This document shows, piece by piece, positions 12,691 through 27,231 of a DNA stretch of 58,433 bases (position 1 is its first letter; every line of letters starts with the position of its first letter). A model generated the notes under the pieces. The model made no database searches and was not told the DNA's origin. It was given only the letters and a program-made list of their open reading frames with translations. The position numbers and the translations under genes are program-made. Location of the stretch: the NCBI RefSeq assembly GCF_002198735.1, contig NZ_MWLO01000112.1:14611-73043 (forward strand). Reading direction: 5' to 3'. Origin of the DNA: Ideonella sp. A 288 (GTDB lineage Bacteria > Pseudomonadota > Gammaproteobacteria > Burkholderiales > Burkholderiaceae_C).

Positions 12691-13464
12691 CTACTGTTCG
12701 ACGAAGGCGCGCTCGATGACGTAGTCGCCCTGCGTCGAGGTGTTGCCTTCCTTGAAGCCGCGGGCGTCGAGCATGCCTTTCAGGTCCTTCAGGAGGCCGG
12801 GGCTGCCGCAGATCATCACGCGGTCTTCGGCCGGGTTGATGGGCGGCACGCCCAGGTCGGTGAAGAGCTTGCCGTTCTCGATCAGCGTGGTGATGCGGCC
12901 GGTGTACTTGAAGGGCTCGCGGGTGACCGTGGGGTAGTACTTGAGCTGATTGCTGACCATCTCGCCCAGGAACTCGTGCTTGGGCAGCTCGGTCTCGAGG
13001 TAGTCGTGGTAGGCCAGCTCGGCCACTTCGCGCACGCCGTGCACTAGGATCACCTGCTCGAACTTCTCGTAGGTGGCCGGGTCGCGGCAGATGCTCATGA
13101 AGGGCGCCAGGCCGGTGCCGCTGGACATCATGTACAGGCGCTTGCCGGGCAGCAGGTAGTCGATGACCAGCGTGCCGGTGGGCTTCTTGCCGACGATGAT
13201 GGTGTCGCCCACCTGGATGTGCTGCAGCCGCGACGTGAGCGGGCCGTCGGGCACCTTGATGCTGAGGAACTCGAGGTGCTCTTCGTAATTGGCGCTGACC
13301 ACGCTGTAGGCGCGCAGCAGCGGCTTGCCGTTGACGCGCAGCCCGATCATCGTGAAGTGCCCGTTGAGGAAGCGCAGCGCCGGGTCTCGCGTGGTGGTGA
13401 ACGAGAACTGGCGGTCGGTCCAGTGGTGCACGGTGAGGACGCGCTCTTCGAGGAATGCACTCAT
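12691..13464 (-). CDS. fpr: Ferredoxin-NADP reductase
   Basis: An FAD enzyme of 257 residues that moves electrons between NADPH and ferredoxin or flavodoxin in the cytoplasm. The FAD-binding motif RAYSV, the nucleotide-binding GTGLAPFMS and the C-terminal VIERAFVEQ are all typical of the bacterial Fpr subclass. A longer frame extends to 13560, but the ATG at 13464 fits the family start (MSAFLEERV) and length. It is co-transcribed with the TetR gene (4-base gap) and divergent from the 6-hydroxynicotinate reductase operon. Known 6-hydroxynicotinate reductase is ferredoxin-dependent, so this placement suggests Fpr regenerates reduced ferredoxin for it; that link is inference. A possible sigma-70 promoter on the minus strand (TTAACG, 16 bases, TACATT) overlaps the half-site cluster. 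Confidence 0.95.
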   Translation of the reverse strand: MSAFLEERVLTVHHWTDRQFSFTTTRDPALRFLNGHFTMIGLRVNGKPLLRAYSVVSANYEEHLEFLSIKVPDGPLTSRLQHIQVGDTIIVGKKPTGTLVIDYLLPGKRLYMMSSGTGLAPFMSICRDPATYEKFEQVILVHGVREVAELAYHDYLETELPKHEFLGEMVSNQLKYYPTVTREPFKYTGRITTLIENGKLFTDLGVPPINPAEDRVMICGSPGLLKDLKGMLDARGFKEGNTSTQGDYVIERAFVEQ

Positions 13465-13540: not shown

Positions 13541-13600
13541 TGCGCTACATTCGGCGCCAATGTAGCAGAGGCTACATCAACGTTAAGTGCACGCTACATG
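13541..13600. promoter_or_regulatory. Cluster of four GCTACA/TGTAGC half-sites, probable TetR operator
   Basis: GCTACA occurs at 13543-13548, 13571-13576 and 13593-13598, and its complement TGTAGC at 13561-13566. They form the inverted repeats GCTACAT-N10-ATGTAGC (13543-13566) and TGTAGC-N4-GCTACA (13561-13576). The cluster lies in the fpr/hnr divergent intergenic region beside a TetR gene, the usual place for such an operator. That this TetR binds here is inference. Confidence 0.7.
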
Positions 13601-13689: not shown

Positions 13690-15315
13690 ATGACCGAGCA
13701 CGAGCACACCAAGACCGACGGCCTGGGCGATTCGCCCGCGCTGCCCGCCGCGGCGGCGCTGGGCGAAGCCTGGCGGGTGGCGCCGCGCAACGAGCGCATG
13801 GCCGCGCACAAGATCGAGTGCAACGCCTGCCCGGTGCTGTGCCAGATCTCCGAGGGCAAGGCGGGTGCCTGCGACCGCTACGCCAACCAGGCCGGCGTGC
13901 TGGTGCGGCTGGATCCGGTGCTGCTGGTGCAGCGAACGGTGGCGGCGGGGCAGGGCGAGCTGGTACCCTTCGTGGCCGCGGCAGACCACGCCGACGCGCC
14001 GGGCGCCGAACCCGCCAGCGTGCCGGTGCCGGCCGGCGGCCTCTTTGTCACCGCGGTGGGGGCGTCCACCACCTACCCCGACTACAAGCCCGCGCCCTTC
14101 ATTGTCTCGACCGAGGTCGACGGCGTCGACATGGTCACCGTGGTCACCGAGGGCATCTTCAGCTACTGCAGCATGAAGGTGAAGATCGACACCGACCGCT
14201 GGCTGGGCCCCGAGCAGGCCAACGTGCGCTGCAAGGGCGAGGTGGTGGGCCATGTCACCACGGCCGAGTACGGCTCGCAGATGCTGTCTCTGGGCGGCGT
14301 GCACCACATCACCGGCGGCAGCAAGAAGGAAGGCCGCGTCACGGTGGACATGATGCAGGCGCTGGGCAACAAGCAGGCGGTGGAGTTCACCATCGACGGC
14401 GGTGCCCGGTTGCTGGTGCAGGCCGGCCACGCGCCGGTGGTCGACGGCGTGCCCGAATCGCGCATGCGTGTGGGCTGCGGCTCGGCCACGGTGGGCATCT
14501 TTGCCGAGCAGTTCCAGGGCCTGGTCGACGAGGTGGTGGTGGTGGACGACCACATCACCGGCGTGCTCACCGAGCACCAGGCCGGGCGCTGCCTGCGCAT
14601 GCGGCCGGCGGGGCTGCAGGTGCGCGGGCGCAAGTCCACGCCGGGCCGCTACTTCCAGGTGGCCAACCCGGGCACCGGCTGGGGCGGCACCGACATCTCC
14701 GATCCGCTGTCCATCGTCGAAAGCTGGGACCCCGCGCTGGCCTGGCCCGGCCTGCGGCTGCTGATGGTGTCCACCACCGGCGAGCATGCGGCCTGGTACA
14801 TCCTCGACGACGCCCTCGTGCCGCAGCCGTCGGCCATGCCCGCGGCGGTGCAGGCCATCGTCGACCGCATCGGCGAGAACTGCGAGCCCTCGCTGGCCAG
14901 CGTGCTGTTCCTGGGCGGCGCCGGCGGCAGCCTGCGCGCCGGCGTCACCGACAACCCGATCCGGCTGACGCAGTCGATCAAGCGTGCGCTGGTCAACGTC
15001 ACCTGCGGCGGCGCGCCCACCTACGTGTGGCCGGGCGGCGGCATCACGGTGATGGCCGACGTGACGCGCATGCCCGACGGCAGCTTCGGCACGGTGCCCA
15101 CGCCGGCCATCGTGGCGCCCATCGAGTTCACGATGCGGCTGGACGACTACCGGGCGCTGGGCGGCCACATGGCCTATGTGCGGCCGCTGGCCCAGGTGCT
15201 GGCCACCGGTGCCTGGCACCGCGACGGCGCGCCCACCGCGCGCCGCACCATCGCCGCGGTGGCCGACAACCCCTGGCCGCTGGCCTGGCCGGGCCCGGGG
15301 CGCACCGTTGGCTGA
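13690..15315 (+). CDS. hnr: 6-hydroxynicotinate reductase
   Basis: Predicted iron-sulfur enzyme of 541 residues that reduces 6-hydroxynicotinate to 1,4,5,6-tetrahydro-6-oxonicotinate using reduced ferredoxin. The N-terminus has a four-cysteine cluster motif, C44-x2-C47-x3-C51-x9-C61, suitable for a 4Fe-4S cluster. The rest is a family-specific domain with segments such as TEGIFSYCSMKVKIDTDRW and RVGCGSATVGIF. The segment VGAST at residues 123-127 loosely resembles the acceptor motif of covalently flavinylated proteins. It is the first gene of a long plus-strand operon and overlaps or abuts the UPF0280 gene. The assignment rests on overall sequence recognition and on nicA/nicB downstream. Related proteins could act on another hydroxylated N-heterocycle. 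Confidence 0.82.
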   Translation: MTEHEHTKTDGLGDSPALPAAAALGEAWRVAPRNERMAAHKIECNACPVLCQISEGKAGACDRYANQAGVLVRLDPVLLVQRTVAAGQGELVPFVAAADHADAPGAEPASVPVPAGGLFVTAVGASTTYPDYKPAPFIVSTEVDGVDMVTVVTEGIFSYCSMKVKIDTDRWLGPEQANVRCKGEVVGHVTTAEYGSQMLSLGGVHHITGGSKKEGRVTVDMMQALGNKQAVEFTIDGGARLLVQAGHAPVVDGVPESRMRVGCGSATVGIFAEQFQGLVDEVVVVDDHITGVLTEHQAGRCLRMRPAGLQVRGRKSTPGRYFQVANPGTGWGGTDISDPLSIVESWDPALAWPGLRLLMVSTTGEHAAWYILDDALVPQPSAMPAAVQAIVDRIGENCEPSLASVLFLGGAGGSLRAGVTDNPIRLTQSIKRALVNVTCGGAPTYVWPGGGITVMADVTRMPDGSFGTVPTPAIVAPIEFTMRLDDYRALGGHMAYVRPLAQVLATGAWHRDGAPTARRTIAAVADNPWPLAWPGPGRTVG

Positions 15316-15322
15316 CGGCCCC

Positions 15323-16327
15323 ATGGGTGGCGCCCAGCGGCAGCCCCTGCCCGGCAGGCGCTGGCACCTGCAGCACGGGCCGATCGACCTGGTGATCGTC
15401 GCCGACGGCGATCCGGCTGCGGTGGCCGCGGCGCACGAGGCGGCGTGGCAGCGGTTTCAGGGCGTGCTCGCCGAACTGGTGGCCGAGTTGCCGCTGCTGC
15501 GGCAGTCGGTGGCGGTGGCGTCGGCCTGCCCACTGCGCGGCCCGGTGGCCCGGCGCATGTGGGCGGCCTGCGCGCCCTACGCGACGCACTTCATCACGCC
15601 GATGGCGGCGGTGGCGGGCTCCGTGGCCCAGGAACTGATCGCCTGCTACCACCGCGACGGCATCCAGCGGGCGGCGGTCAACAACGGCGGCGACATCGCG
15701 CTGCACCTGGCGCCCGGCGCGTCGTTCCGCATCGGCATGGTGGCCGATATCGCCTCTGGCATTGGCGCACGCACCACGCCGGGGCCGATGCCGCTGGATG
15801 GCCACCTGACGGTGCAGGCCGGCGACCCGGTGCGAGGCGTGGCCACCAGTGGCTGGCGCGGCCGCAGCCTGTCGCGCGGCATCGCCGACAGCGTCACCGT
15901 GCTGGCCGCCACCGCGGCCATGGCCGATGCCGCGGCCACGATGATCGCCAACGCGGTGGATGTGGACGACCCGCGCATCGTGCGCCGTCCGGCGGGCGAG
16001 GTGCGCGACGACAGCGACCTGGGCGAGCGGCTGGTGACGGTGGACGTGCCGACCCTGTCGTCCGACGCGGTGCGCCGCGCGTTGCAGGCCGGTGCCGATG
16101 TCGCACGGCAGTTCCAGGCGCGCGGCTGGATCGTCGCCGCGGCCTTGCACTGCCAGGGGCAGCACCGGCGCGTGGGCGACGCGGCGTCAGGCGTCCTGGC
16201 CCCATCATTGCTACCGTCGGTCGATGGGCTTCCTCGCGGCCCGGGCCCGATCGGCAGAACCACCCGACCCAGCATGACGACACTCGCCCGACGACCCGGC
16301 ACCTCCCACGAGAGCACCACGACATGA
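15323..16327 (+). CDS. UPF0280 family protein (ApbE-like fold), unknown function
   Basis: A protein of 334 residues in the UPF0280 family, which is related in fold to ApbE-type flavin transferases. The segment NNGGDIALHL resembles the conserved GGDI region of ApbE, and IASGIGARTTPG is also family-typical. I chose the ATG at 15323 because the family usually starts just before RRWHLQHGPIDL; a TTG at 15308 would overlap the hnr stop. The last 45 or so residues, after GQHRRVGDA, are low-complexity and look like translation through what would otherwise be a spacer. The stop overlaps the next ATG (ATGA). Its neighbour Hnr is a predicted flavoprotein, so a role in flavin attachment or cofactor handling is a reasonable hypothesis, not a demonstrated function. 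Confidence 0.8.
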   Translation: MGGAQRQPLPGRRWHLQHGPIDLVIVADGDPAAVAAAHEAAWQRFQGVLAELVAELPLLRQSVAVASACPLRGPVARRMWAACAPYATHFITPMAAVAGSVAQELIACYHRDGIQRAAVNNGGDIALHLAPGASFRIGMVADIASGIGARTTPGPMPLDGHLTVQAGDPVRGVATSGWRGRSLSRGIADSVTVLAATAAMADAAATMIANAVDVDDPRIVRRPAGEVRDDSDLGERLVTVDVPTLSSDAVRRALQAGADVARQFQARGWIVAAALHCQGQHRRVGDAASGVLAPSLLPSVDGLPRGPGPIGRTTRPSMTTLARRPGTSHESTTT

Positions 16328-16974
16328 GCGACCCTGGCCTGATCGACATCCGCCGCATCGTCACCTGCGTGGAAGACATCGTCCACGAGGGCGGCCCGCG
16401 CGCGGCCGTGCCGTTGCGGCGCGGCGCCATCGCGGTGGTGCTGACCAACCCCTACGCCGGCCGCTACGAGCCCGACATCCTGCCGATGATGGACGCGCTG
16501 CAGCCGGTGGGCATCGACATGGCGCACCGCCTGCGCGCCGCGATGGACGTGCCGGTGGAGCGCATCCAGGGCTACGGCAAGGGCGCCATCATCGGCTCGG
16601 CCGGCGAACTGGAGCACGGCGCCCTGTGGCACGTGCCCGGCGGCTATGCGATGCGCGAACTGCTGGGCTGGAAGGGCGATGCCGCCGCCTACAAGCGTGG
16701 CGATGCGTCCAGTGGCCAGGCCGGCAACGCGCTGGCCATCGTGCCCAGCACCAAGAAGGTCGGCCCGCCGGGCGCCACGCTCGACGTGCCGCTCACCCAC
16801 ATCAACGCCAGCTACGTGCGCAGCCATTTCGACGCGATGGAAGTGCGCGTGGCGGGCTCGCCGCGGCCCGACGAGATCGTCTACATCCTGGCGATGAGCA
16901 CCGGCCCGCGGGTGCACGCCCGCGTGGGCGGACTGGCCGCCGAGGCCATCGCCAAGTGGGACGGCCAGCGCTGA
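16324..16974 (+). CDS. DUF1185 ('amino acid synthesis') family protein, first paralogue
   Basis: A protein of 216 residues from the family labelled 'amino acid synthesis' (DUF1185), for which I know no proven reaction. Conserved segments are NPYAGRYEPDI, GYGKGAIIG, GELEHG, VPSTKK and VRSHFDAMEVRV. The charged residues in them (Arg, Lys, Glu, His, Asp) could form an active site. The start ATG overlaps the stop of the UPF0280 gene, indicating coupled translation. A second, clearly homologous copy follows after 21 bases. Lying between hnr and a transporter, the pair is a candidate for the ring-opening or deamination steps that must follow Hnr, but nothing in the sequence proves this. Confidence 0.87.
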   Translation: MSDPGLIDIRRIVTCVEDIVHEGGPRAAVPLRRGAIAVVLTNPYAGRYEPDILPMMDALQPVGIDMAHRLRAAMDVPVERIQGYGKGAIIGSAGELEHGALWHVPGGYAMRELLGWKGDAAAYKRGDASSGQAGNALAIVPSTKKVGPPGATLDVPLTHINASYVRSHFDAMEVRVAGSPRPDEIVYILAMSTGPRVHARVGGLAAEAIAKWDGQR

Positions 16975-16995
16975 TCCCCTCCGGAGAACCATCCC

Positions 16996-17580
16996 ATGCC
17001 CGCACAGATCCGCAAGCTCATCGTCCAGGTGGACGAGACCCACCGCGAGATGGGCCGCCCCGTGCAGCCGCCCACGCGCCGGGCTCTGGCCATGGCGGTC
17101 ATCCGCAACCCCTTTGCCGGCCGCTACGTCGAGGACCTGGGCGAACTCATCGCCATCGGCGAAGAGCTGGGCGCGCTGCTCGGCGCGAAGTGCGTGCAGG
17201 CGCTGGGCATCGAGCCCGCGCAGGCGCAGAGCTACGGCAAGGCCGCCATCGTTGGCGAGGCGGGCGAGATCGAACACGCCGCCGCGTTGCTGCACCCCAA
17301 GCTCGGCGCGCCACTGCGCAAGGCGGTCGAGAAGGGTGCGGCGCTGGTGCCGTCGGCCAAGAAGCAGGGCGGTGTCGGCACCGCCGTCGACGTGCCGCTG
17401 GGCCACAAGGACGCCGCCTTCGTGCGCAGCCACTTCGACGCGATGGAGGCGCGCGTGTCGGATGCGCCGCGCGCCGACGAGATCGTCGTCGCCGTGGTCG
17501 TCACCGACAGCGGCCGGCCGCTGGCCCGCATCGGCGGCCTGCAGGCGCATGAGGTCGTCGGCCAGGACGGCCTGCGCTGA
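16996..17580 (+). CDS. DUF1185 ('amino acid synthesis') family protein, second paralogue
   Basis: A protein of 194 residues homologous to the preceding gene. It shares NPFAGRYVEDL, SYGKAAIVG, GEIEHA, VPSAKK and VRSHFDAMEARV. It lacks the 20 or so residues that the first copy carries after the GELEH segment (around GYAMRELLGW). A ribosome binding site (CCGGAG) precedes the ATG. Tandem paralogues that keep the same polar residues may form a hetero-oligomer or catalyse successive steps. The function is unknown, and the spacer to the next gene is 80 bases. Confidence 0.87.
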   Translation: MPAQIRKLIVQVDETHREMGRPVQPPTRRALAMAVIRNPFAGRYVEDLGELIAIGEELGALLGAKCVQALGIEPAQAQSYGKAAIVGEAGEIEHAAALLHPKLGAPLRKAVEKGAALVPSAKKQGGVGTAVDVPLGHKDAAFVRSHFDAMEARVSDAPRADEIVVAVVVTDSGRPLARIGGLQAHEVVGQDGLR

Positions 17581-17660
17581 TGGCCTGCGTTCGGCGCCTC
17601 CACACCGGTTATCGTTTCCCCTTCGGCTCTTTCACCATCCCCCACGAGGACACCCCCACC

Positions 17661-18863
17661 ATGTTCCGTCGCACCCTGATTTCGGCCGCCGCGATGTCCG
17701 CGGCCCTGCTGTCGATCGCTCCGGCCCAGGCCCAGGACGTGATCAAGATCGGCGAGGTCAACAGCTACAAGGTGCAGCCGGCCTTCCTCGAGCCCTACAA
17801 GAAGGGCATGGAACTGGCCGTCGAGGAGATCAACGCCGCCGGCGGCGTCAACGGCAAGAAGCTGCAGCTGATCACCCGCGACGACAATGGCAACCCGGGC
17901 GACGCGGTGCGCGCCGCCGAAGAGCTGGTGTCGCGCGAGCGGGTCGATGTGCTCACCGGCGCCTTCCTGTCGAACATCGGCCTGGCGCTCACCGACTTCG
18001 CCAAGCAGAAGAAGTTCTTCTACCTGGCCTCCGAGCCGCTCACCGACAAGATCGTCTGGGGCAGCGGCAACCGCTACACCTTCCGCCTGCGGCCGTCCAC
18101 CTACATGCAGTCGGCGATGCTGGTGCCCGAGGCCGTCAAGCTCAAGAAGAAGCGCTGGGCCGTCATCTACCCCAACTACGAGTACGGCCAGTCGGCCGTG
18201 GCCACCTTCAAGCAGTTGCTGAAGGCCGCGCAGCCGGATGTCGAGTTCGTCGGCGAGCAGGCGCCGCCGCTGGGCAAGCTGGATGCCGGCAGCGCGGTGC
18301 AGGCGCTGGCCGACGCCAAGCCCGACGCAATCTTCAACGTGCTGTTCGGTGCCGACCTGGCCAAGTTCGTGCGCGAGGGCAACACCCGCGGCCTGTTCCA
18401 GGGCCGCGAGGTGGTGAGCATGCTCACCGGCGAGCCCGAGTACCTCGATCCGCTGAAGGACGAAACCCCCAACGGCTGGATCGTCACCGGCTACCCCTGG
18501 TACGGCATCCAGACGCCCGAGCACAAGGCCTTCTTCCTGGCCTACCACCGCAAGTACAACGACTACCCGCGCCTGGGCTCGGTGGTGGGCTACAGCGCCA
18601 TCCATTCGCTGGCCGCGGGCATCAAGAAGGCCAAGAGCACCGACACCGAGAAGCTCATCACCGCCTTCCGCGGGCTGGAACTGATGACGCCCTTCGGCAA
18701 GGCCGTCTATCGCGCGCAGGACCACCAGTCGACCATGGGCGCCTACGTCGGCAAGACGCTCAACGACAAGGGCAAGGGCACGATGGTCGACTACCGCTAT
18801 CTCGACGGCGCCAAGTTCCAGCCCACGGACGAGGAAGTGAAGAAGCTGCGCCCCGCGCAATGA
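17661..18863 (+). CDS. Periplasmic substrate-binding protein of a branched-chain-amino-acid-type ABC transporter
   Basis: A protein of 400 residues in the LivK-like (Peripla_BP_6) family. It starts with a cleavable signal peptide ending near APAQAQ-D, followed by the typical IKIGEVNSYKVQPAFLEPY opening and GGVNGKKLQLI. It captures a substrate in the periplasm for the permease and ATPases encoded directly downstream. Members of this family carry amino acids, amides, aromatic acids and other small carboxylates. In this operon the substrate may be nicotinate, 6-hydroxynicotinate or a related acid (inference). An 80-base spacer upstream and a 98-base spacer with hairpins downstream could set its expression level apart from its neighbours. 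Confidence 0.93.
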   Translation: MFRRTLISAAAMSAALLSIAPAQAQDVIKIGEVNSYKVQPAFLEPYKKGMELAVEEINAAGGVNGKKLQLITRDDNGNPGDAVRAAEELVSRERVDVLTGAFLSNIGLALTDFAKQKKFFYLASEPLTDKIVWGSGNRYTFRLRPSTYMQSAMLVPEAVKLKKKRWAVIYPNYEYGQSAVATFKQLLKAAQPDVEFVGEQAPPLGKLDAGSAVQALADAKPDAIFNVLFGADLAKFVREGNTRGLFQGREVVSMLTGEPEYLDPLKDETPNGWIVTGYPWYGIQTPEHKAFFLAYHRKYNDYPRLGSVVGYSAIHSLAAGIKKAKSTDTEKLITAFRGLELMTPFGKAVYRAQDHQSTMGAYVGKTLNDKGKGTMVDYRYLDGAKFQPTDEEVKKLRPAQ

Positions 18864-18873
18864 CGACCCCCAA

Positions 18874-18926
18874 GACGCCTTCGGCGTCGCCCCCCCGAGG
18901 GGGAGCCCGGCCGCCTTGGGGCGGCC
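18874..18926. repeat. GC-rich intergenic palindromic element, copy 1
   Basis: Three stem-loops follow one another: GACGCC-TTC-GGCGTC (18874-18888), a C-run/G-run hairpin around CGA (18891-18903) and GGCCGCC-TTGG-GGCGGCC (18909-18926). The same arrangement recurs near 38724 and 45662. Its position between the binding-protein gene and the permease gene may dampen downstream expression or stabilise the upstream message. Confidence 0.7.
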
Positions 18927-18961
18927 CGGCGCCGGCCGGTATCTCCTTCGACTGACGCTCG

Positions 18962-20854
18962 ATGACGCTTTCCGCCTTCGCCGTGCAACTGCTCAACGGG
19001 CTGGCCGGGGCGTCGTCGCTGTTCCTGGTGGCGGCGGGGCTGTCGCTCATCTTCGGCGTCACGCGCATCGTCAACTTCGCGCACGGCTCGTTCTTCATGC
19101 TGGGCGTGTACATCGCCTATGCGCTGGTCGAACGCTTCGGCGCCGGGCTGGGCTTCTGGCCGGCACTGCTGCTGGCGGCGGTGGCGGTGGGCGCCATCGC
19201 GGCGGTGGTGGAGGTGGTGCTGCTGCGCCGCATCTACCGCGCGCCCGAGCTGTTCCAGCTGCTGGCCACCTTTGCGCTGGTGCTGGTGATCAAGGACGCG
19301 GCGCTGTGGCTGTGGGGTGCCGAAGACCTGCTGGGGCCGCGGGCCCCGGGCCTGTCGGGCTCCATCGACATACTGGGCCGCCGCTTCCCCACCTACGACC
19401 TGCTGCTGATCGTCGTCGGCCCGGTGGTGCTGGGCGCGCTGTGGCTGCTGCTCACCCGCACCCGCTGGGGCACGCTGGTGCGCGCCGCCACGCAAGACCG
19501 CGAGATGGTCGGTGCGCTCGGCGTCAACCAGGCCTGGCTCTTCACCAGCGTGTTCGCGCTGGGCGGCGCGCTGGCCGGTCTGGGCGGCGCGCTGCAACTG
19601 CCGCGCGAGCCGGCCTCGCTGGCGCTCGACTTGCTCACCATCGGCGACGCCTTCGTCGTGGTGGTGGTCGGTGGCATGGGCTCGATCCCCGGCGCCTTCG
19701 TCGCCGCGCTGCTGATCGCCGAGATCAAGGCGATCTGCGTGGGCATCGGCACGGTGAACTGGTTCGGCGTCGACTTCGCGTTCTCCAAGCTCACGCTGGT
19801 GGTCGAGTTTTTGGTGATGGCCGTGGTGCTGATCGTGCGGCCCTGGGGCCTGATGGGCAAGCCGCAGGCGGCCAGCCGCAATGCCGCGGCCACCGAGCCG
19901 CCGCTGCGCTCGGCCAGTCGGCCGCTGCTGATGGTGGCGGGGGTGTTCGGCGTGGCGCTGCTGGCGTTGCCCTTTGCCACGGCCAACAGCCCCTATGTCA
20001 CGGTGCTGGCGATCGACCTGCTCACCGCCGCGTTGTTCGCGACCAGCCTGCACTTCATCATGGGGCCGGCGGGCATGCACTCGTTCGGCCATGCGGCCTA
20101 CTTCGGCCTGGGCGCGTATGCCGCGGCGCTGCTGATGCTGAAGGGCGGCTGGCCGATGGAGGCCGCGCTGGTGGCCGCGCCGCTGATCGCCGGGCTGGGC
20201 GCGCTGGTGTTCGGCTGGTTCAGCGTGCGGCTGTCGGGCGTGTACCTGGCAATGCTCACGCTGGCCTTCGCGCAGATCGTCTGGTCGGTGGCCTTCCAGT
20301 GGGACGATTTCACCGGCGGCAGCAACGGCCTCACCGGCGTCTGGCCGGCCGAGTGGCTGAGCGACAAGCGCGCCTACTACTTCGCCACGCTGCTGCTGGT
20401 GGTGGGCGGCGTGCTGGCGCTGCGGCGCATCCTGTTCTCGCCCTTCGGCTTCGCGATGCGTGCCGGGCGCGATTCGCCGCTGCGCGCCGACGCCATCGGC
20501 ATCGACGTGCCGCGCATCCAGTGGGCGGCCTTCGTCATCGCGGCGGTGTTCGCCGGCCTGGCCGGCGCGCTGTACGCCTTCAGCAAGGGCAGCATCTCGC
20601 CCGACAGCATGGCGGTGGGCAAGTCGGTGGACGGCCTGGTGATGGTGCTGCTGGGCGGGCTGCAGACGCTCAGCGGCCCGGTGGCCGGCGCCGTCACGTT
20701 CACCTGGCTGCAGGACAGCGTGGCCCGCTCCACCGACTACTGGCGCGCCATGCTCGGCGGCATCATCCTGCTGCTGGTGCTGGCCTTCCCGATGGGCATC
20801 GCCGGCTTCGTCGGCCAGTGGTTCGAGCGGCGCACGCGGGGGCTGCCGTCATGA
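18962..20854 (+). CDS. Fused LivH-LivM ABC transporter permease
   Basis: A 630-residue membrane protein made of two permeases in one chain. Residues 1-290 resemble LivH (opening with LLNGLAGASSLFLVAAGLSL and containing IVNFAHGSFFMLG). Residues 320-630 resemble LivM (LHFIMGPAGMHSFGHAAYFG, GRDSPLRADAIGID). Each half has multiple hydrophobic segments. In the classical system these are two genes; the fusion fixes a 1:1 ratio and is found in several proteobacterial paralogues. The stop overlaps the ATG of the first ATPase gene. It forms the membrane channel for the substrate delivered by the upstream binding protein. Confidence 0.93.
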   Translation: MTLSAFAVQLLNGLAGASSLFLVAAGLSLIFGVTRIVNFAHGSFFMLGVYIAYALVERFGAGLGFWPALLLAAVAVGAIAAVVEVVLLRRIYRAPELFQLLATFALVLVIKDAALWLWGAEDLLGPRAPGLSGSIDILGRRFPTYDLLLIVVGPVVLGALWLLLTRTRWGTLVRAATQDREMVGALGVNQAWLFTSVFALGGALAGLGGALQLPREPASLALDLLTIGDAFVVVVVGGMGSIPGAFVAALLIAEIKAICVGIGTVNWFGVDFAFSKLTLVVEFLVMAVVLIVRPWGLMGKPQAASRNAAATEPPLRSASRPLLMVAGVFGVALLALPFATANSPYVTVLAIDLLTAALFATSLHFIMGPAGMHSFGHAAYFGLGAYAAALLMLKGGWPMEAALVAAPLIAGLGALVFGWFSVRLSGVYLAMLTLAFAQIVWSVAFQWDDFTGGSNGLTGVWPAEWLSDKRAYYFATLLLVVGGVLALRRILFSPFGFAMRAGRDSPLRADAIGIDVPRIQWAAFVIAAVFAGLAGALYAFSKGSISPDSMAVGKSVDGLVMVLLGGLQTLSGPVAGAVTFTWLQDSVARSTDYWRAMLGGIILLLVLAFPMGIAGFVGQWFERRTRGLPS

Positions 20855-21618
20855 GCTTGTTGACTGTGCAGGGCCTGGGCAAGTCCTTCGGCGGCAACCG
20901 CGCCGTCGACGGCATCGGCTTCTCGGTGGCCAAGGGCGAGCTGCTGGCGCTGATCGGCCCCAACGGCGCCGGCAAGTCCACCACCTTCAACATGGTCAAC
21001 GGCCAGTTGCGGCCCGATGCCGGCTCGATCCTGCTCGAAGGCCAGGAACTCATCGGCCTGAAGCCGCGCGAGATCTGGAAGCGCGGCGTGGGCCGCACCT
21101 TCCAGATCGCAGAGACCTTCTCGTCGCTCACCGTGGTCGAGAACGTGCAGATGGCGCTGCTGTCGGCCGACGCGAAGCTGTTCTCGCTGTGGCGCCGCGC
21201 CGCCGACCACCGCCGCGACGAGGCCATGGCGCTGCTGTCGCAGGTGGGCATGGCCGCGCAGGCCGAGCGGCCCTGCAGCGTGCTGGCCTATGGCGACGTC
21301 AAGCGGGTGGAGCTGGCCATCGCGATGGCCAACGGCCCGAAGCTGCTGCTGATGGACGAGCCCACCGCCGGCATGGCCCCGAAGGAGCGCAACGAGCTGA
21401 TGTCGCTGACCAAGCGCCTGGTCGTCGACCGCGGCCTGGCGGTGCTGTTCACCGAGCACAGCATGGACGTGGTCTTCGCCCACGCCGACCGCCTGATCGT
21501 GCTGGCCCGCGGCCGCCTGATCGCCGAGGGCACGGCGTCTGAAATACGCGACCACCCCAAGGTGCAGGAGGTCTACTTCGGCAGCGGCAAGACCTTCGAG
21601 AAGAAGGTGCCTGCGTGA
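20851..21618 (+). CDS. ABC transporter ATP-binding protein, LivG type
   Basis: A 255-residue ATPase with Walker A GPNGAGKST and Walker B LLLMDEPTAGMAP, where the AGM(A/S)P extension is typical of LivG. The switch histidine lies in LFTEHSMDVV. The usual LSGGQ signature is replaced by VLAYGDVKR, a common variant in LivG-type proteins (LSYGEQR). The ATG overlaps the permease stop, and its own stop overlaps the GTG of the next gene, so translation is coupled. It powers import together with the LivF-type partner. Confidence 0.93.
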   Translation: MSLLTVQGLGKSFGGNRAVDGIGFSVAKGELLALIGPNGAGKSTTFNMVNGQLRPDAGSILLEGQELIGLKPREIWKRGVGRTFQIAETFSSLTVVENVQMALLSADAKLFSLWRRAADHRRDEAMALLSQVGMAAQAERPCSVLAYGDVKRVELAIAMANGPKLLLMDEPTAGMAPKERNELMSLTKRLVVDRGLAVLFTEHSMDVVFAHADRLIVLARGRLIAEGTASEIRDHPKVQEVYFGSGKTFEKKVPA

Positions 21619-22346
21619 CCGGCAGTCTATTGCTCGAAGTGGACGGCCTGTGCGCCTGGTACGGCGCCGCGCAGATCCTGTTCGACGTGGGCCTGCAGGT
21701 GAAGCGCGGCGAGGTGGTGGCGCTGATGGGCCGCAACGGCGCCGGCAAGAGCACCACGCTGAAGGCGCTGATGGGTCTGATCGACCGCCGCCGCGGCGGC
21801 GTGCGCTTCATGGGGCAGGACATCGCGCGCCGCGCGCCCTACGAGATCGCGCGGCTGGGTCTGGGCTTCGTGCCGGAAGACCGGCGCATCTTCAGCGACC
21901 TCACGGTCACCGAGAACCTCGACGTCGGCCGCCAGCCGCCGCGCCGCTGGCCCGACGGCAGCGCCGCGCCGGTGTGGACGCCCGAGGCCTTGTTCAAGCT
22001 CTTCCCCAACCTGGGCGAGATGCCCGACCGGCCCGGTGGCCGCACCAGCGGCGGCGAGCAGCAGATGCTCACCGTGGCGCGCACGCTGATGGGCAACCCC
22101 TTCCTGGTGCTGCTGGACGAGCCCAGCGAGGGCGTGGCCCCGGTCATCGTCGAGCAGATGGCGCAGATGATCCTGGCGCTGAAAAGCCAGGGCGTGAGCA
22201 TCCTGCTGTCCGAGCAGAACATGCATTTCGCCGAACTGGTGTCCGACCGGGCCTACGTGCTCGAGAAGGGCCAGATCCGATACGAGGCCACCATGGCCGA
22301 GCTTGCCGCCAACGACGAGGTGCGGCGGGCGTATCTTTCCATGTGA
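21615..22346 (+). CDS. ABC transporter ATP-binding protein, LivF type
   Basis: A 243-residue ATPase starting at GTG 21615, inside the stop of the LivG-type gene. It has Walker A GRNGAGKST, signature TSGGEQQML (Thr in place of the usual Leu), Walker B FLVLLDEPSEGVAP and switch histidine region SEQNMHFAELV, in which the usual His appears to be Asn. The chain opens with LCAWYGAAQILFDV, as in LivF. It completes the transporter with the upstream binding protein, fused permease and LivG-type ATPase. The changes in signature and switch regions occur in other LivF proteins and do not by themselves imply inactivity. Confidence 0.93.
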   Translation: MTGSLLLEVDGLCAWYGAAQILFDVGLQVKRGEVVALMGRNGAGKSTTLKALMGLIDRRRGGVRFMGQDIARRAPYEIARLGLGFVPEDRRIFSDLTVTENLDVGRQPPRRWPDGSAAPVWTPEALFKLFPNLGEMPDRPGGRTSGGEQQMLTVARTLMGNPFLVLLDEPSEGVAPVIVEQMAQMILALKSQGVSILLSEQNMHFAELVSDRAYVLEKGQIRYEATMAELAANDEVRRAYLSM

Positions 22347-22387
22347 CCTCGTCGACCCTGCCCGTCAACCCCGCTGGAGTGAACACC

Positions 22388-23113
22388 ATGAACCCGACCC
22401 ACCGCCGTGCCTTCCTCCACACCCTGTCGCTGGCCGGACTGGCCGCGTCCGCGCCGCTGGCGGCCTTGGCCGCCGGCAAGGTCAAGCCCGGCGCCAACAG
22501 TGCGCTGATCGTCGTCGACGTGCAGAACTGCTTCGTCACCGGCGGCACGCTGCCGGTGAAGAACGGCGAAGAGGTGGTGCCGGTGATCAACAAGATCGCG
22601 GGGGCGTTCCAGAACATCGTGGTCACGCAAGATTGGCACACCGCCGGCCACGCCTCGTTCGCCAGCAGCTATGGCGGCAAGAAGCCCTTCGAGACCACCA
22701 CGCTGAAGTACGGCCAGCAGGTGCTGTGGCCCGACCACTGCGTGCAGGGCACCGACGACGCGGCGCTGCACAAGGATTTGAAGCTGCCCACCGCGCAGTT
22801 GATCATCCGCAAGGGCTACAACAAGGGCGTCGACAGCTACTCGGCCTTCCAGGAGGCCGACCGCAAGACGGTCACCGGCCTGGCCGGCTACCTGAAGGCG
22901 CGGGGCATCAAGACGCTCTACGTCACCGGCCTGGCCACCGACTTCTGCGTCGCCTGGACGGCGATGGACGCGCGTGCCGCCGGCTTCGAGGTCAGCGTGA
23001 TCGAGGACGCCTGCCGCGGCATCGACTTGAACGGCTCGCTCGCCGCCGCCTGGAAGCAGATGACGGCCAAGGGCGTCAAGCGCCTGCAGTCGGCCGACCT
23101 CGACCTCGCCTGA
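22388..23113 (+). CDS. Isochorismatase-like cysteine hydrolase, probable exported nicotinamidase
   Basis: A 241-residue hydrolase of the nicotinamidase type, which converts nicotinamide to nicotinate and ammonia. The catalytic triad is visible as Asp in IVVDVQNCF, Lys in IIRKGYNKG and Cys in TGLATDFCVAW. The metal-site region DWHTAGHASF has the Asp and two His of nicotinamidases. The N-terminus THRRAFLHTLSLAGLAA, ending ALAA, looks like a twin-arginine signal, so the enzyme should fold in the cytoplasm and act in the periplasm. That is unusual, since most nicotinamidases are cytoplasmic. In this operon it would supply nicotinate from external nicotinamide upstream of NicAB. A related amidase substrate cannot be excluded. 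Confidence 0.87.
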   Translation: MNPTHRRAFLHTLSLAGLAASAPLAALAAGKVKPGANSALIVVDVQNCFVTGGTLPVKNGEEVVPVINKIAGAFQNIVVTQDWHTAGHASFASSYGGKKPFETTTLKYGQQVLWPDHCVQGTDDAALHKDLKLPTAQLIIRKGYNKGVDSYSAFQEADRKTVTGLAGYLKARGIKTLYVTGLATDFCVAWTAMDARAAGFEVSVIEDACRGIDLNGSLAAAWKQMTAKGVKRLQSADLDLA

Positions 23114-23116
23114 CGC

Positions 23117-23611
23117 TTGGGCCGCACCGTGCGCCTGCACGTCAACGGCCAGGTTCACGACCTTGACGTGCCGGGCAGCGCACCGCTGCTGCAGGTGCTG
23201 CGCAACGACCTCGGCCTGAACGGGCCGAAGTACGGCTGCGGCCTGGGCGAGTGCGGCGCCTGCCTGGTGCTGCTGGACGGCGTGCCCGCACGGGCCTGCT
23301 GCATTCCGGTGGCGGGTGTGGACGGGCGCAAGGTGACCACGCTCGACGGCCTGGGCAGGCCCGGGCAGCCGCATCCGGTGCAGCAGGCCTTCATCGACTG
23401 CCAGGCGGCGCAGTGCGGTTACTGCCTGAACGGCATGGTGATGACCACTGTGGCACTGCTGCGCCGGCACCCCCAACCCACCGAGGCGCAGGCGCGCGCG
23501 GCGCTGTCGCACAACCTGTGCCGCTGCGGCACGCACCTCGAGATCCTGGCGGCGGTGCAGCGGGCGGCGCAGCTGTCGGCTGCGGTCCCCGCCAGCCCCG
23601 GCGTCCCATGA
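23117..23611 (+). CDS. nicA: Nicotinate dehydrogenase small subunit, 2Fe-2S protein
   Basis: A 164-residue two-cluster iron-sulfur subunit of the xanthine dehydrogenase family. The plant-ferredoxin-type cluster uses C41, C46, C49 and C61 (CGLGECGAC motif). The second cluster uses C100, C103, C135 and C137 (CGYC and CRC). It passes electrons from the molybdenum subunit to the cytochrome part of NicB during hydroxylation of nicotinate to 6-hydroxynicotinate. The start is uncertain: TTG at 23117, or GTG at 23129 (160 residues); neither has a good ribosome binding site. The stop overlaps the nicB ATG, indicating coupled translation. Confidence 0.9.
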   Translation: MGRTVRLHVNGQVHDLDVPGSAPLLQVLRNDLGLNGPKYGCGLGECGACLVLLDGVPARACCIPVAGVDGRKVTTLDGLGRPGQPHPVQQAFIDCQAAQCGYCLNGMVMTTVALLRRHPQPTEAQARAALSHNLCRCGTHLEILAAVQRAAQLSAAVPASPGVP

Positions 23612-26600
23612 CCGGGCGGCACCGCGCCTGGCGCACACGGCAGGACATCCGCGCCGCCGAGGGCGTGCTGCTGGTGCTGCGCGACGCGCCCGCGCCGCCG
23701 CCCCCGGCGCGCGGCCAGCCGCCCATCGTGCCGGGCAACCCGGCCGAAGGCCCGGAGATCCTGCTGGTCGTCGGCGACGACGGCCAGGCCACCGTGCTGG
23801 CCGGCCATGTCGACCTGGGCACGGGCATCCGCACCGCCTACGCCCAGCTGGTGGCGGAGGAACTGGACCTGCCGCTGGCCCAGGTGCAGGTGGTGCTGGG
23901 CGACACCGCCCGCGCGCCGAACCAGGGCCCGACGATCGCCAGCACCTCGATCCAGATCCACGCCCAGCCGCTGCGGCTGGCCGCGGCGCAGGCGCGGGCC
24001 TGGCTGCGGGCCGAGGCGGCGCAGCGCTGGGGCGTGCCGCCCGAGTCGCTCACATCGCGCGATGGCCTGCTGTCGCTGCCCGACGGCCGCCAGGTGGGCT
24101 ACGGCGCGCTGCTGCGCGGCCGCCATGTCGAGCTGATGCTCGACGCCAGCACGCCGCTGAAGCCCGTCGCCGAGCACCGCGTGGTCGGCACCTCGGCGCC
24201 GCGGGTGGACATCCCGGCCAAGGCCACGGGCCAGGCCGTCTTCGTGCACGACATGCGCGTGCCCGGCATGCTGCACGGCCGCGTCGTGCGGCCGCCCTAT
24301 GCCGGCGTCGATGCCGGCGACTTCGTCGGCCGCACGCTGAAGTCGGTGGACGAGTCGTCGATCGCGCACCTGCCGGGCATCGTCGGCCTGGTGGTGCAGG
24401 GCGACTTCATCGGCGTGGTCGCCGAGCGCGAAGACCAGGCCGAGGCCGCGATGCACGCGCTGCGCGTCGATTGGCACCCCTGGCCGGCGCTGCCCCCGCT
24501 GGACGACCTGGCGCAGGCCCTCAGCGCCCACCCATCGACGCCGCGCGTGGTGGCCGAGCAGGGCGATGTCGACGCGGCGCGCGCCGCCGCCGCGCAGCCG
24601 ATGGATCGGCGCTACGTTTGGCCTTACCAGATGCACGCGTCCATCGGCCCCTCGTGCGCGCTGGCCGACTGGCGCGGCGATGCGCTCACCGTGTGGGCCG
24701 GCACGCAGAACCCGCACGTGCTGCGCGCCGACCTGGCCCGGCTCACCGGCCTGGCCGACACCGCCATCGAGGTGGTGCGCCTGGAGGCCGCCGGCTGCTA
24801 CGGCCGCAACGGCGCCGACGACGTGGCGGCAGATGCGGCGCTGATGTCGCGCGCCGTGGGCCGGCCGGTGCGCGTGCAGCTCACGCGCGAGCAGGAGCAC
24901 GCCTGGGAGCCCAAGGGCGCCGCGCAGCTGATGGACGTGCGCGGCGGGCTCGACGCGCAGGGCGCGCCAGTGGGCTACGACTTCGCCACCAGCTACCCCA
25001 GCAACGGCGCGCCCACGCTGGCGCTGCTGCTCACCCGCACCATCGAGCCGGTGGCGCAGGCCTTCGAGATGGGCGACCGCACCGCGGTGCCGCCCTACGG
25101 CTACCCGCACCAGCGCATCACCGTCAACGACATGGCGCCGATTCTGCGCGCGTCGTGGCTGCGCGGCGTGTCGGCGCTGCCCAACTCGTTCGCGCACGAG
25201 AGCTACATCGACGAGCTGGCCACGGCGGCCGGTGTCGACCCGGTCGCGTACCGATTGCGATATCTGAAGGACGAGCGCGCCGCCGAGCTGGTGCGCGCCA
25301 CCGCCGACAAGGCCGGCTGGAAGCCGCACACCGTGCCGCAGCAGCAGGGCGCCCGCGGCGACTGGCTGCAGGGCCAGGGCTTCGCCTACGCGCGCTACGT
25401 GCACAGCCGCTTCCCCGGCTTCGGCGCCGCCTGGGCGGCGTGGGTGGCCGACGTGGAGGTGCACCGCGAGACCGGCGAGGTGCATGTGTCGCGCGTGGTC
25501 GTCGGCCACGACGCCGGCCTGATGGTCAACCCGGCCGGCGTGCAGCAGCAGGTGCACGGCAACGTGCTGCAGACCACCAGCCGCGCGCTGAAGGAGCGGG
25601 TGCAGGTGGACCCCGACACCCGCGCGGTGGCCAGCCGCGACTGGGGCGCCTACCCGATCCTCAGCTTCCGCGAGGTGCCGGTGGTCGAGGTGCTGCTGAT
25701 GCCGCGGCCCGGCGAGGCGCCGCTGGGCGTCGGTGAATCGGCCTCGGTGCCCGGCACCGCGGCCATTGCCAACGCCATCTTCGACGCCACCGGCGTGCGC
25801 TTCCGCGATCCGCCGTTCACGCCCGAGGTGGTGCGCGCGGCGCTGCACCCGCTGCCCGCACCCTCGGCGGTCGCCGAGCCCGCACCGGCCAGGGCGCCGG
25901 TGGTGCCCGTGGCACCTGCCGCCGACCCGCAGCGCGGCCGCAAGCGGCCCTGGGCGGTGGCGCTGGCGCTCGTGGGCGGCGCGCTGGGCCTGGGCGCCGC
26001 CGCGCTGGGCTGGCGTCCGGCCATCGCGCCGGTGCAGGGCTCGGCCAGCGGCGTGTACGGCGCGGCCATCGTCGAGCGCGGCCGGCAGCTCGCCGCGCTG
26101 GGCAACTGCGCCGTGTGCCACACCGCACCGGGCGGTGTCGTCAACGCCGGCGGCCGCGCGATGGTCACGCCTTTCGGCACGCTGTACTCCACCAACCTCA
26201 CCCCCGATGCCGACACCGGCCTGGGGCGCTGGTCGTTCTCGGCATTCCAGCGAGCCATGCGCGAAGGCGTCTCGCGCGATGGCCACCACCTCTACCCGGC
26301 CTTCCCGTTCACCTCGTTCACCCAGGCCAGCGACGACGACCTGATGGCGCTGTACGCCCACCTGATGTCGCAGCCGCCGGTGCGGGCCGAGACGCCGGCC
26401 AGCACGATGCGCTTCCCGTTCAACCTGCGCCCGCTGATGGGCCTGTGGAACGCGCTGCACCTGCAGCCCGGCCCGGCACCGGCGGTGGCTGGGCATAACG
26501 CACAATGGCAGCGTGGCGCCAGCCTGGTCAACGGCCTGGGCCACTGTGGCGCCTGCCACACCCCGCGCGACGCCACCGGTGCCGAGCGCACGCAGTCGGC

Positions 26601-27231
26601 TTACCTGGGCGGCGCGCTGGTGCAGGGCTGGGACGCGCCGGCGCTGGGCGCGCTGAGCCGGTCGCCGGTGCCCTGGACCGAAGACACCCTGGTGCAGTAC
26701 CTGCGCCAGGGCCACAGCCCGCAGCACGGCGTGGCCGGCGGGCCGATGGCCCCGGTGGTGCGCGGCCTGGCCACGCTGCCCGAAGACGACGTGCGCGCGA
26801 TGGCCCATTACCTGATGTCGCTGCAGGCCACGCCGCGCGAGGCCAGTCCCACCGCATCGGCCGAGGCACTGATCGCCCGCAGCCAGGCCCAGGCCGCCGT
26901 GCTGCGCGGCCCGGCGCAGCGCATGTTCGACAGCGCCTGCGGGGCCTGCCACCACGACGGCGACGGCCCCGAGGTGGCGGGCCTGAACCTGCCGCTGGCC
27001 CTCAACGGCAAGCTGCATGCCGAGCGGCCCGACAACCTGCTGCGCACGGTGATCGACGGCATCCAGGACCCGGCCTTCCCACGGCTGGGCCACATGCCGG
27101 CCTTCGGCCGCGCCATCGACGACCGGCAACTGGCCGAACTGGCCGCCTACCTGCGCCAGCGCTTCGCCCCCGGGCAGCCGGCCTGGGACGACCTGCCCGC
27201 GGCGGTGGCGCGCGCGCGGGCGGCGCAGTGA
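23608..27231 (+). CDS. nicB: Nicotinate dehydrogenase large subunit, molybdopterin plus three cytochrome c domains
   Basis: A 1,207-residue fusion matching the architecture of NicB of the aerobic nicotinate pathway. Residues 20-760 are the molybdenum-cofactor hydroxylase, with the catalytic glutamate in GVGESASVPG (E710). A single hydrophobic segment at about 782-802 follows. Then come three c-type haem sites: C834AVCH, C980GACH and C1111GACH. The membrane segment suggests that the hydroxylase part stays in the cytoplasm while the cytochromes face the periplasm and pass electrons to the respiratory chain. With NicA it adds water-derived oxygen to carbon 6 of nicotinate. No FAD domain is present, as expected for this type. 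It is the last clear member of the operon. Confidence 0.93.
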   Translation: MTGRHRAWRTRQDIRAAEGVLLVLRDAPAPPPPARGQPPIVPGNPAEGPEILLVVGDDGQATVLAGHVDLGTGIRTAYAQLVAEELDLPLAQVQVVLGDTARAPNQGPTIASTSIQIHAQPLRLAAAQARAWLRAEAAQRWGVPPESLTSRDGLLSLPDGRQVGYGALLRGRHVELMLDASTPLKPVAEHRVVGTSAPRVDIPAKATGQAVFVHDMRVPGMLHGRVVRPPYAGVDAGDFVGRTLKSVDESSIAHLPGIVGLVVQGDFIGVVAEREDQAEAAMHALRVDWHPWPALPPLDDLAQALSAHPSTPRVVAEQGDVDAARAAAAQPMDRRYVWPYQMHASIGPSCALADWRGDALTVWAGTQNPHVLRADLARLTGLADTAIEVVRLEAAGCYGRNGADDVAADAALMSRAVGRPVRVQLTREQEHAWEPKGAAQLMDVRGGLDAQGAPVGYDFATSYPSNGAPTLALLLTRTIEPVAQAFEMGDRTAVPPYGYPHQRITVNDMAPILRASWLRGVSALPNSFAHESYIDELATAAGVDPVAYRLRYLKDERAAELVRATADKAGWKPHTVPQQQGARGDWLQGQGFAYARYVHSRFPGFGAAWAAWVADVEVHRETGEVHVSRVVVGHDAGLMVNPAGVQQQVHGNVLQTTSRALKERVQVDPDTRAVASRDWGAYPILSFREVPVVEVLLMPRPGEAPLGVGESASVPGTAAIANAIFDATGVRFRDPPFTPEVVRAALHPLPAPSAVAEPAPARAPVVPVAPAADPQRGRKRPWAVALALVGGALGLGAAALGWRPAIAPVQGSASGVYGAAIVERGRQLAALGNCAVCHTAPGGVVNAGGRAMVTPFGTLYSTNLTPDADTGLGRWSFSAFQRAMREGVSRDGHHLYPAFPFTSFTQASDDDLMALYAHLMSQPPVRAETPASTMRFPFNLRPLMGLWNALHLQPGPAPAVAGHNAQWQRGASLVNGLGHCGACHTPRDATGAERTQSAYLGGALVQGWDAPALGALSRSPVPWTEDTLVQYLRQGHSPQHGVAGGPMAPVVRGLATLPEDDVRAMAHYLMSLQATPREASPTASAEALIARSQAQAAVLRGPAQRMFDSACGACHHDGDGPEVAGLNLPLALNGKLHAERPDNLLRTVIDGIQDPAFPRLGHMPAFGRAIDDRQLAELAAYLRQRFAPGQPAWDDLPAAVARARAAQ

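What the first reader, a model, noticed from the sequence alone, without database searches (positions are those of the whole stretch)
13690..27231. A hybrid oxidative/reductive nicotinate operon with unassigned enzymes where ring opening should be
One tightly coupled operon combines NicAB, the molybdenum/cytochrome nicotinate hydroxylase of aerobic bacteria, with 6-hydroxynicotinate reductase, the ferredoxin-dependent enzyme of the reductive route known from anaerobes. It also holds an exported nicotinamidase and its own ABC importer. The enamidase, formylglutarate steps and NicC/NicX of known pathways are absent. Two DUF1185 proteins and a UPF0280 protein fill that gap and may represent a new ring-opening route. 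Seen: gene content, overlaps and motifs. Inferred: the pathway.
Basis: partly seen in the sequence, partly recalled or inferred. Interest (0 to 1): 0.85.

Follow-up and report, generated by a model that had tools for sequence, protein, structure and literature searches.

The report
Known nicotinate operon, enamidase located elsewhere
This bacterium carries a known kind of vitamin B3 (nicotinate) breakdown operon whose apparently missing ring-opening enzyme is encoded elsewhere in its genome, while the two unexplained gene families in the operon probably act just before and just after ring opening.

Summary
The gene content is real. In order: divergent TetR and ferredoxin reductase, then Hnr, UPF0280, two DUF1185 (AA_synth) proteins, a branched-chain-type ABC importer, a nicotinamidase with a Tat-like leader, NicA and NicB. 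The oxidative/reductive mix is not new: it is the aerobic THON pathway known from Azorhizobium, with a conserved cluster published for strain SG-6C.

The supposed ring-opening gap is an accident of position. The same genome has an enamidase (C63:105141-106328) that matches E. barkeri enamidase 2VUN at E=4e-111. In 73 of 100 related hnr loci enamidase sits in the locus together with UPF0280 and DUF1185, so those do not replace it. Three near relatives have lost it from the operon too, and carry it elsewhere.

UPF0280 co-occurs perfectly with hnr (the same 32 of 348 genomes, always close by) and its predicted fold is that of ApbE flavin transferases, though the ApbE catalytic-His segment is missing. 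I propose that it installs Hnr's flavin. DUF1185 recurs in trigonelline-type operons without hnr (17 of 30 places). I propose that it acts after ring opening, on 2-formyl-dicarboxylates. Both proposals are predictions.

The parts
11832..12686 (-). TetR-family regulator (TetR_N + TetR_C_29), likely repressor of the operon
   Evidence: a homologue is in 70 of 80 named hnr loci
12691..13464 (-). ferredoxin--NADP reductase (FNR) homologue; likely electron supply for Hnr. ORF is open to 13560 from a TTG; ATG start at 13464 preferred
   Evidence: FAD- and NAD-binding domains; named FNR in CP099606; homologue in 54 of 72 named loci with over 1.3 kb upstream
13544..13598 (.). predicted TetR operator: four TGTAGC/GCTACA half-sites forming two palindromes
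   Evidence: 64 of 79 relatives have a half-site in the 330 bp before hnr (15 of 79 a palindrome); 1.48 per 330 bp against 0.095 in the rest of the loci
13690..15315 (+). Hnr, 6-hydroxynicotinate reductase; C44-x2-C47-x3-C51-x9-C61 plus C160, C263, C398 invariant over 32 sequences
15323..16327 (+). UPF0280 protein, ApbE-like fold; proposed flavin transferase or flavin-insertion factor for Hnr
16324..16974 (+). AA_synth/DUF1185 copy 1 (AAS1); proposed post-ring-opening enzyme
16996..17580 (+). AA_synth/DUF1185 copy 2 (AAS2), 40% identical to copy 1; close to the solved structure 2QTP
17661..18863 (+). ABC substrate-binding protein (branched-chain amino acid/urea type); likely nicotinate importer part
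18962..20854 (+). fused LivH-LivM-type permease
20851..21618 (+). ABC ATPase (LivG type)
21615..22346 (+). ABC ATPase (LivF/UrtE type)
22388..23113 (+). nicotinamidase with Tat-like leader
23117..23611 (+). NicA, [2Fe-2S] subunit of nicotinate hydroxylase
23608..27231 (+). NicB, molybdopterin subunit with cytochrome c domains

Best explanation
This is a member of the aerobic THON (Azorhizobium-type) nicotinate pathway. Nicotinamide is deamidated by an exported nicotinamidase, nicotinate is imported by the ABC system and hydroxylated by NicAB, and 6-hydroxynicotinate is reduced by Hnr with electrons supplied through the divergent FNR. The product THON is opened by an ordinary enamidase encoded elsewhere in the genome (contig C63) to 2-formylglutarate. 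UPF0280 is an ApbE-fold protein dedicated to Hnr and most likely installs its flavin (inferred, about 0.55). The AA_synth pair acts after ring opening, most likely speeding hydrolysis or decarboxylation of the 2-formyl-dicarboxylate to glutarate semialdehyde (inferred, about 0.4), the role proposed here also for TgnF in trigonelline breakdown. Shown here: gene content, enamidase in the genome, co-occurrence, predicted fold, genomic contexts. Inferred: all reactions.
For: Own-genome enamidase is 87% identical to the cluster enamidase of CP099606 and matches 2VUN at E=4.3e-111. Enamidase is in the fetched locus in 68 of 80 named hnr loci, 66 of them with UPF0280 and AA_synth. UPF0280 is over cut-off in exactly the 32 of 348 genomes with Hnr, same strand, within 500 bp by the printed coordinates (Fisher p 5e-46, which treats related genomes as independent; Hnr is in 16 of 207 genera). 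It follows Hnr in 78 of 78, 8 of 8 and 12 of 12 loci with enough sequence. UPF0280 model pLDDT 87; Foldseek ranks 1-2 are 2O34, ranks 3-41 are all ApbE/Ftp/FmnB flavin transferases, 8 of these at E<=0.001. A cytosolic ApbE serving a soluble reductase is known in Klebsiella (PMC12052999, section read). AA_synth is in 31 of 32 hnr genomes and in 28 without hnr; in the latter 17 of 30 places lie in Tgn-like operons, 3 more beside TgnD+ALDH homologues, 2 beside an amidohydrolase of the L189 type, itself 43% identical to enamidase.
Against: The C63 enamidase lies behind an acetyltransferase-like ORF and lacks the half-sites seen before hnr, so co-regulation is unproven. UPF0280 lacks the ApbE segment H-x(1,2)-[DN]-P-x-x-G (0 of the 57 of 60 sequences that have both flanking motifs), does not hit PF02424, and sequence-profile comparison with an own-genome ApbE failed. 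Foldseek TM-scores to ApbEs are modest, 0.23-0.45. No ApbE-type target motif was identified in Hnr: GSAT is GSAA or GSAS in two relatives. Covalent flavin in E. barkeri Hnr is recalled (Alhapel 2006), not read. One hnr genome (G486) has no AA_synth. Attempts to see a TgnF-like stimulation by the DUF1185 protein HcdD failed (PMC7913881, passage). No homologue of the Tgn aldehyde dehydrogenase is in any of 100 hnr loci.
Confidence: 0.62

Rival explanations
1. One reading: DUF1185 and/or UPF0280 open the THON ring in place of enamidase. The DUF1185 fold (chorismate-mutase-like) would act as a cyclic-amide hydrolase.
For: Both families are unassigned and sit directly after hnr. No enamidase in the window (one search finds the only own-genome match on C63).
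Against: Enamidase orthologue in the same genome. Enamidase coexists with UPF0280 and DUF1185 in 73 of 100 loci, so they are not substitutes. Of the 20 plasmid and survey loci, the 13 without enamidase have HyuA hydantoinase in 10, never together with Ena at the identity cut-offs used; 3 have neither within the stretch fetched.
Confidence: 0.06
2. UPF0280 is not a flavin transferase but a non-catalytic flavin- or iron-sulfur-assembly factor, or a subunit of Hnr, using an ApbE-like fold without transferase chemistry.
For: The catalytic-His segment of ApbE is missing. Perfect co-occurrence with Hnr fits a subunit or chaperone equally well.
Against: VATSG- and ADAxAT-like motifs resembling those of ApbE are kept in 57 of 60 sequences, which suggests retained ligand binding (that these motifs bind ligand is recalled).
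Confidence: 0.3
3. AA_synth proteins are not enzymes of the carbon path but accessory proteins that stabilise or stimulate a semialdehyde dehydrogenase, as stated for TgnF.
For: PMC7913881 (passage) reports that TgnF stimulates TgnE-dependent succinate semialdehyde oxidation. An ALDH homologue lies near AA_synth in 23 of 30 hnr-less places.
Against: No homologue of that ALDH is in any of the 100 hnr loci examined (one ALDH used as query). Several invariant polar residues remain besides the published salt bridges.
Confidence: 0.3
4. The operon serves another pyridine carboxylate (for example 6-halonicotinate) and nicotinate only incidentally.
For: SG-6C feeds 6-chloronicotinate into the same cluster type (PMC3511419).
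Against: A nicotinamidase and NicAB are in the operon, which points to nicotinamide/nicotinate. Dehalogenases were not searched for.
Confidence: 0.06

Closest known systems
Azorhizobium caulinodans / Bradyrhizobiaceae SG-6C nicotinate cluster (THON pathway)
   Same: Reduction of 6-hydroxynicotinate by an Hnr homologue in an aerobe; [quoted passage not shown]
   Different: Here the enamidase is unlinked, an exported nicotinamidase is included and there are two AA_synth copies. The Azorhizobium genes themselves were not read here
Eubacterium barkeri nicotinate fermentation (Hnr, Ena)
   Same: Hnr and enamidase steps; enamidase 2VUN matches the own-genome protein
   Different: Anaerobe; per recall its nicotinate dehydrogenase is a different selenium enzyme and 2-formylglutarate is reduced, not decarboxylated. 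Its cluster could not be read here
ApbE / Ftp / FmnB flavin transferases
   Same: Predicted fold of UPF0280; VATSG- and ADAxAT-like motifs
   Different: No catalytic-His segment, no PF02424 match; constant partner of Hnr
PF06684 proteins: TgnF (trigonelline), HcdD (7-hydroxycoumarin), SPO0826/2QTP, BB2672/3BYQ
   Same: Same family; 2QTP is close to AAS2; TgnF and HcdD per PMC7913881
   Different: In this operon it occurs as an adjacent pair, without an aldehyde dehydrogenase

Membership tests
Aerobic THON (Azorhizobium-type) nicotinate pathway | NicAB-type molybdenum/cytochrome nicotinate hydroxylase | tested here: met
Aerobic THON (Azorhizobium-type) nicotinate pathway | 6-hydroxynicotinate reductase | tested here: met
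   60-72% identity to plasmid proteins, many annotated Hnr; no direct comparison with the E. barkeri sequence
Aerobic THON (Azorhizobium-type) nicotinate pathway | THON-opening enamidase in the genome | tested here: met
   C63:105141-106328; not in the operon
Aerobic THON (Azorhizobium-type) nicotinate pathway | Intermediates 6-hydroxynicotinate, THON, glutarate | not testable with these tools
   needs growth and LC-MS
ApbE flavin transferase (UPF0280 protein) | ApbE (tandem T-fold) architecture | tested here: met
   Foldseek ranks 3-41 all ApbE/Ftp/FmnB, modest TM-scores
ApbE flavin transferase (UPF0280 protein) | Match to PF02424 | tested here: not met
   0 Pfam families at E<=0.001
ApbE flavin transferase (UPF0280 protein) | catalytic-His segment (H-x(1,2)-[DN]-P-x-x-G) | tested here: not met
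   0 of 57 UPF0280 sequences; present in both own-genome ApbEs that I aligned (a third, split match was not used)
ApbE flavin transferase (UPF0280 protein) | FMN transfer from FAD to a Thr/Ser | not testable with these tools
   biochemistry needed
AA_synth PF06684 | Profile match over curated cut-off | tested here: met
   both copies; copy 2
Nicotinamidase | Isochorismatase-fold match with nicotinamidase as best solved relative | tested here: met

The most novel reading that the evidence does not exclude
UPF0280 (NF003322) is a new, cytoplasmic, His-less branch of the ApbE flavin transferases dedicated to one enzyme, Hnr. DUF1185 is a new enzyme class with a chorismate-mutase-like fold that hydrolyses or decarboxylates 2-formyl-dicarboxylates (or their enamines). 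It is shared by the reductive nicotinate, trigonelline and other heterocycle pathways and may work here as an AAS1/AAS2 heterohexamer.
Probability: 0.3. Interest if true: 0.65.

Novelty: new member of a known kind. Interest (0 to 1): 0.45.

Why it matters
The operon itself is a known kind, so the claimed new ring-opening route falls. The survey makes two old unknown families testable: UPF0280, a perfect genomic partner of Hnr with a flavin-transferase-like fold, and DUF1185, solved in 2010 without a function, which appears in two pyridine-carboxylate pathways whose ring-opened products are both 2-formyl-dicarboxylates (chemistry recalled for trigonelline). It also points to HyuA/HyuB as a likely alternative ring opener in other hnr clusters.

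Tried and rejected
A flavinylation motif GSAT in Hnr was considered and rejected as not conserved. Sequence-profile comparison UPF0280-ApbE gave only a spurious local match; structure was needed. An Hnr structure model was poor (pLDDT 65.5) and its fold search gave nothing at E<=0.001, so no flavin site can be named. I tested whether the unlinked enamidase shares the TetR half-sites: none was found upstream of it, nor upstream of six copies in other genomes. Own-genome HyuA (C151, 34% identical) was considered as ring opener and set aside as too distant. Remote kinship of DUF1185 with cyanuric-acid hydrolase was considered from memory and not tested. The E. barkeri cluster was not reached (the one genome-contig scan kept only near relatives), so whether it has UPF0280 is open. 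L103-L171 (apart from their printed coordinates) and L209-L211 were fetched but not analysed one by one.

Literature searches: (held open-licence library only). The term UPF0280 occurred in none of the papers listed; I make no wider claim of absence from print. Papers: PMC3511419 passages and two sections; PMC2954203 passages; PMC7913881 passages; PMC12052999 passages and one section; PMC9304392 passages; others as search listings only. Alhapel 2006, Kitts 1992 and Perchat 2018 are recalled or seen only as citations.
Full report
OBSERVATION. The operon is as described. On the + strand: Hnr 13690-15315, UPF0280 15323-16327, AA_synth copies 16324-16974 and 16996-17580, substrate-binding protein 17661-18863, fused permease 18962-20854, ATPases 20851-21618 and 21615-22346, nicotinamidase 22388-23113, NicA 23117-23611, NicB 23608-27231. 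Divergent: FNR and TetR. The nicotinamidase matches solved nicotinamidase 2wt9 at E=5.6e-88; a nicotinamidase homologue is in 30 of 61 named relatives with at least 9.5 kb downstream. The window lies in a 6.98 Mb, 164-contig genome at contig C16.

THE HYBRID IS KNOWN. Reduction of 6-hydroxynicotinate to THON in an aerobe was reported for Azorhizobium. A conserved cluster for the first three steps, with transporter and two proteins of unknown function, was published for SG-6C, Azorhizobium and other Bradyrhizobiaceae (PMC3511419, sections 7 and 13 read). A 2022 paper describes THON opening by a bifunctional enamidase to 2-formylglutarate in E. barkeri (PMC9304392, passages).

THE GAP IS FILLED ELSEWHERE. 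In the plasmid CP099606, with the same operon, an amidohydrolase gene sits next to TetR. It matches E. barkeri enamidase 2VUN at E=2.4e-111. The window's genome encodes an 87% identical protein at C63:105141-106328, itself matching 2VUN at E=4.3e-111. Among 80 named hnr loci (the best 80 of at least 592) enamidase at 60% identity or more is in the locus in 68, 66 of them with UPF0280 and at least one AA_synth; the other two show no AA_synth in the stretch held. Of the 12 without enamidase, nine have under 1.8 kb of upstream sequence. Three (L023, L024, L025, the first three of the list by match to the query) have TetR and room beyond it but no enamidase. So loss from the operon is shared with the window's near relatives. 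I searched the genomes of 8 of those 12: six have a full enamidase, among them all three of L023-L025; one has only a fragment and one no orthologue. Two of the six (for L027 and L030) have a TetR homologue beside it, so they may be the same cluster cut by a contig end. For L024 it seems to lie on the same contig (equal length, 56,018), some 20 kb from hnr. 3 of 3 controls with a local copy were found. Against tight integration: the C63 copy has no half-site like the operon's and follows an acetyltransferase-like ORF.

A SECOND RING OPENER IN RELATIVES. Of 8 plasmid and 12 survey loci, 7 have enamidase (60% or more), 10 have HyuA at 58% or more identity to that of L013, none has both, 3 have neither. 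Below those cut-offs L014 has enamidase and also a HyuA/HyuB pair at 41-42%. The plasmid loci are 8 of the 26 records found and the survey loci 12 of the 32 hnr genomes; I chose them for diversity. HyuA/HyuB (hydantoinase/oxoprolinase) is therefore the likely non-orthologous replacement (inference). The window's genome has only a 34% HyuA.

UPF0280. In a survey of 348 Pseudomonadota genomes (three searches, apparently the same draw), Hnr was found in 32 and NF003322 over cut-off in the same 32, on the same strand within 500 bp by the printed coordinates; two further genomes had sub-cut-off fragments without Hnr. A few of these genes carry a stop or are split (for example Hnr in G380, G486, G575; UPF0280 in G681). 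UPF0280 follows Hnr in 78 of 78, 8 of 8 and 12 of 12 loci with enough sequence. The AlphaFold model is good (pLDDT 87.1, pTM 0.84). Foldseek gives 2O34 at E=3e-12, then 39 chains that are all ApbE/Ftp/FmnB flavin transferases (E 3e-4 to 4e-2, 8 of them at or below 0.001; TM-scores 0.23-0.45) before unrelated folds. 57 of 60 sequences keep both VATSG- and ADAxAT-like motifs, but none of the 57 has the H-x(1,2)-[DN]-P-x-x-G segment that the two aligned own-genome ApbEs have. ApbE's general base is a histidine (PMC12052999, passage); that it lies in this segment is my reading. So it works plausibly like ApbE but fails two ApbE membership tests. E. barkeri Hnr is recalled to carry a covalent flavin (Alhapel 2006, not held), which is what makes flavinylation the leading guess.

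AA_SYNTH (DUF1185). It is in 31 of 32 hnr genomes and 28 of 316 others. I took all 30 places listed for the 28 hnr-less genomes: 17 lie in a trigonelline-type operon (at least 3 of: alpha/beta hydrolase, flavin reductase, LLM monooxygenase, ALDH), 3 more have hydrolase plus ALDH, 3 have ALDH only, 2 are beside an amidohydrolase of the L189 type (itself 43% identical to enamidase), 3 beside a fumarylacetoacetate-hydrolase homologue, 2 other. Of 10 annotated plasmid places that I picked from 388 records, 7 are trigonelline-type. TgnF is reported to stimulate succinate semialdehyde oxidation; the same paper failed to see such an effect for HcdD (PMC7913881, passage). The label Tgn for these operons rests on gene families and recall of Perchat 2018. 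Common denominator (inference): both routes give a 2-formyl-dicarboxylate that must lose nitrogen and CO2 to become a semialdehyde. The Azorhizobium route runs via glutarate (PMC3511419); that it goes by decarboxylation and oxidation is recalled. Over 21 AA_synth sequences R10, N42, K86, E97, H98, R111, E184, R196 and R200 are among the invariant residues. The crystal paper assigns R7-E19, E90-R176 and E92-R172 to oligomer salt bridges (passages), so N42, K86, H98 and R111 are the better candidates for catalysis (my mapping). SPO0826 (2QTP, nearest AAS2) was crystallised alone with 47 of 194 residues not seen and without the dimer interface; a missing AAS1 partner could explain that (speculation). 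Against this, the paper reports that SPO0826 alone is a hexamer in solution at pH 8 and low salt, and explains the crystal form by pH and salt.

REGULATION. Four TGTAGC/GCTACA half-sites lie at 13544-13598, the only cluster among the 20 in the window. Half-sites are enriched about 15-fold before hnr in relatives (64 of 79 have one; 15 of 79 a palindrome; L024 and L025 none). The TetR protein is the likely reader (inference).

VERDICT. An ordinary-to-good example of a known pathway. The proposed new ring-opening route is not supported. The lasting interest is in two testable functions for unknown families.

Noticed in passing
window 13544-13598: Cluster of four TGTAGC/GCTACA half-sites forming two palindromes in the divergent promoter; at least one half-site before hnr in 64 of 79 relatives.
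   Followed up: yes
L011, L012, L013, L015, L017, L172-L175, L182: Hydantoinase/oxoprolinase HyuA (mostly with HyuB) replaces enamidase in these hnr clusters; never both at the cut-offs used.
   Followed up: partly
L014:12437-16001, L015:11277-14829, L016, L017: In 4 of 8 plasmid hnr clusters a different molybdenum hydroxylase (FAD subunit plus large subunit, in three of them overlapping hnr) stands where no NicAB was found.
   Followed up: no
L172 (G486): One hnr+UPF0280+HyuA cluster in a genome without any AA_synth match; what replaces it is unknown.
   Followed up: no
L021:9985-10572 (G000 contig C49): Third AA_synth copy of the genome, near a class III aminotransferase and a LysE-type exporter, with no nicotinate or Tgn genes of the query set in 20 kb.
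   Followed up: partly
L189:6989-8799 (Mesorhizobium plasmid pWSM4875): AA_synth next to an amidohydrolase 43% identical to enamidase, with a succinate-semialdehyde dehydrogenase and a molybdenum hydroxylase nearby but no hnr in the stretch: possibly another heterocycle pathway.
   Followed up: partly
26 plasmid records, e.g. CP099606.1, NZ_CP081121.1: hnr is found on 26 of 72,556 plasmid records, 12 of them Sulfitobacter and 4 Rhizobium, so the pathway is plasmid-borne in some lineages.
   Followed up: no
window 32307-33482 and 34543-35583: Two TctC-type tripartite tricarboxylate transporter receptors downstream of the operon; permeases were not looked for.
   Followed up: no
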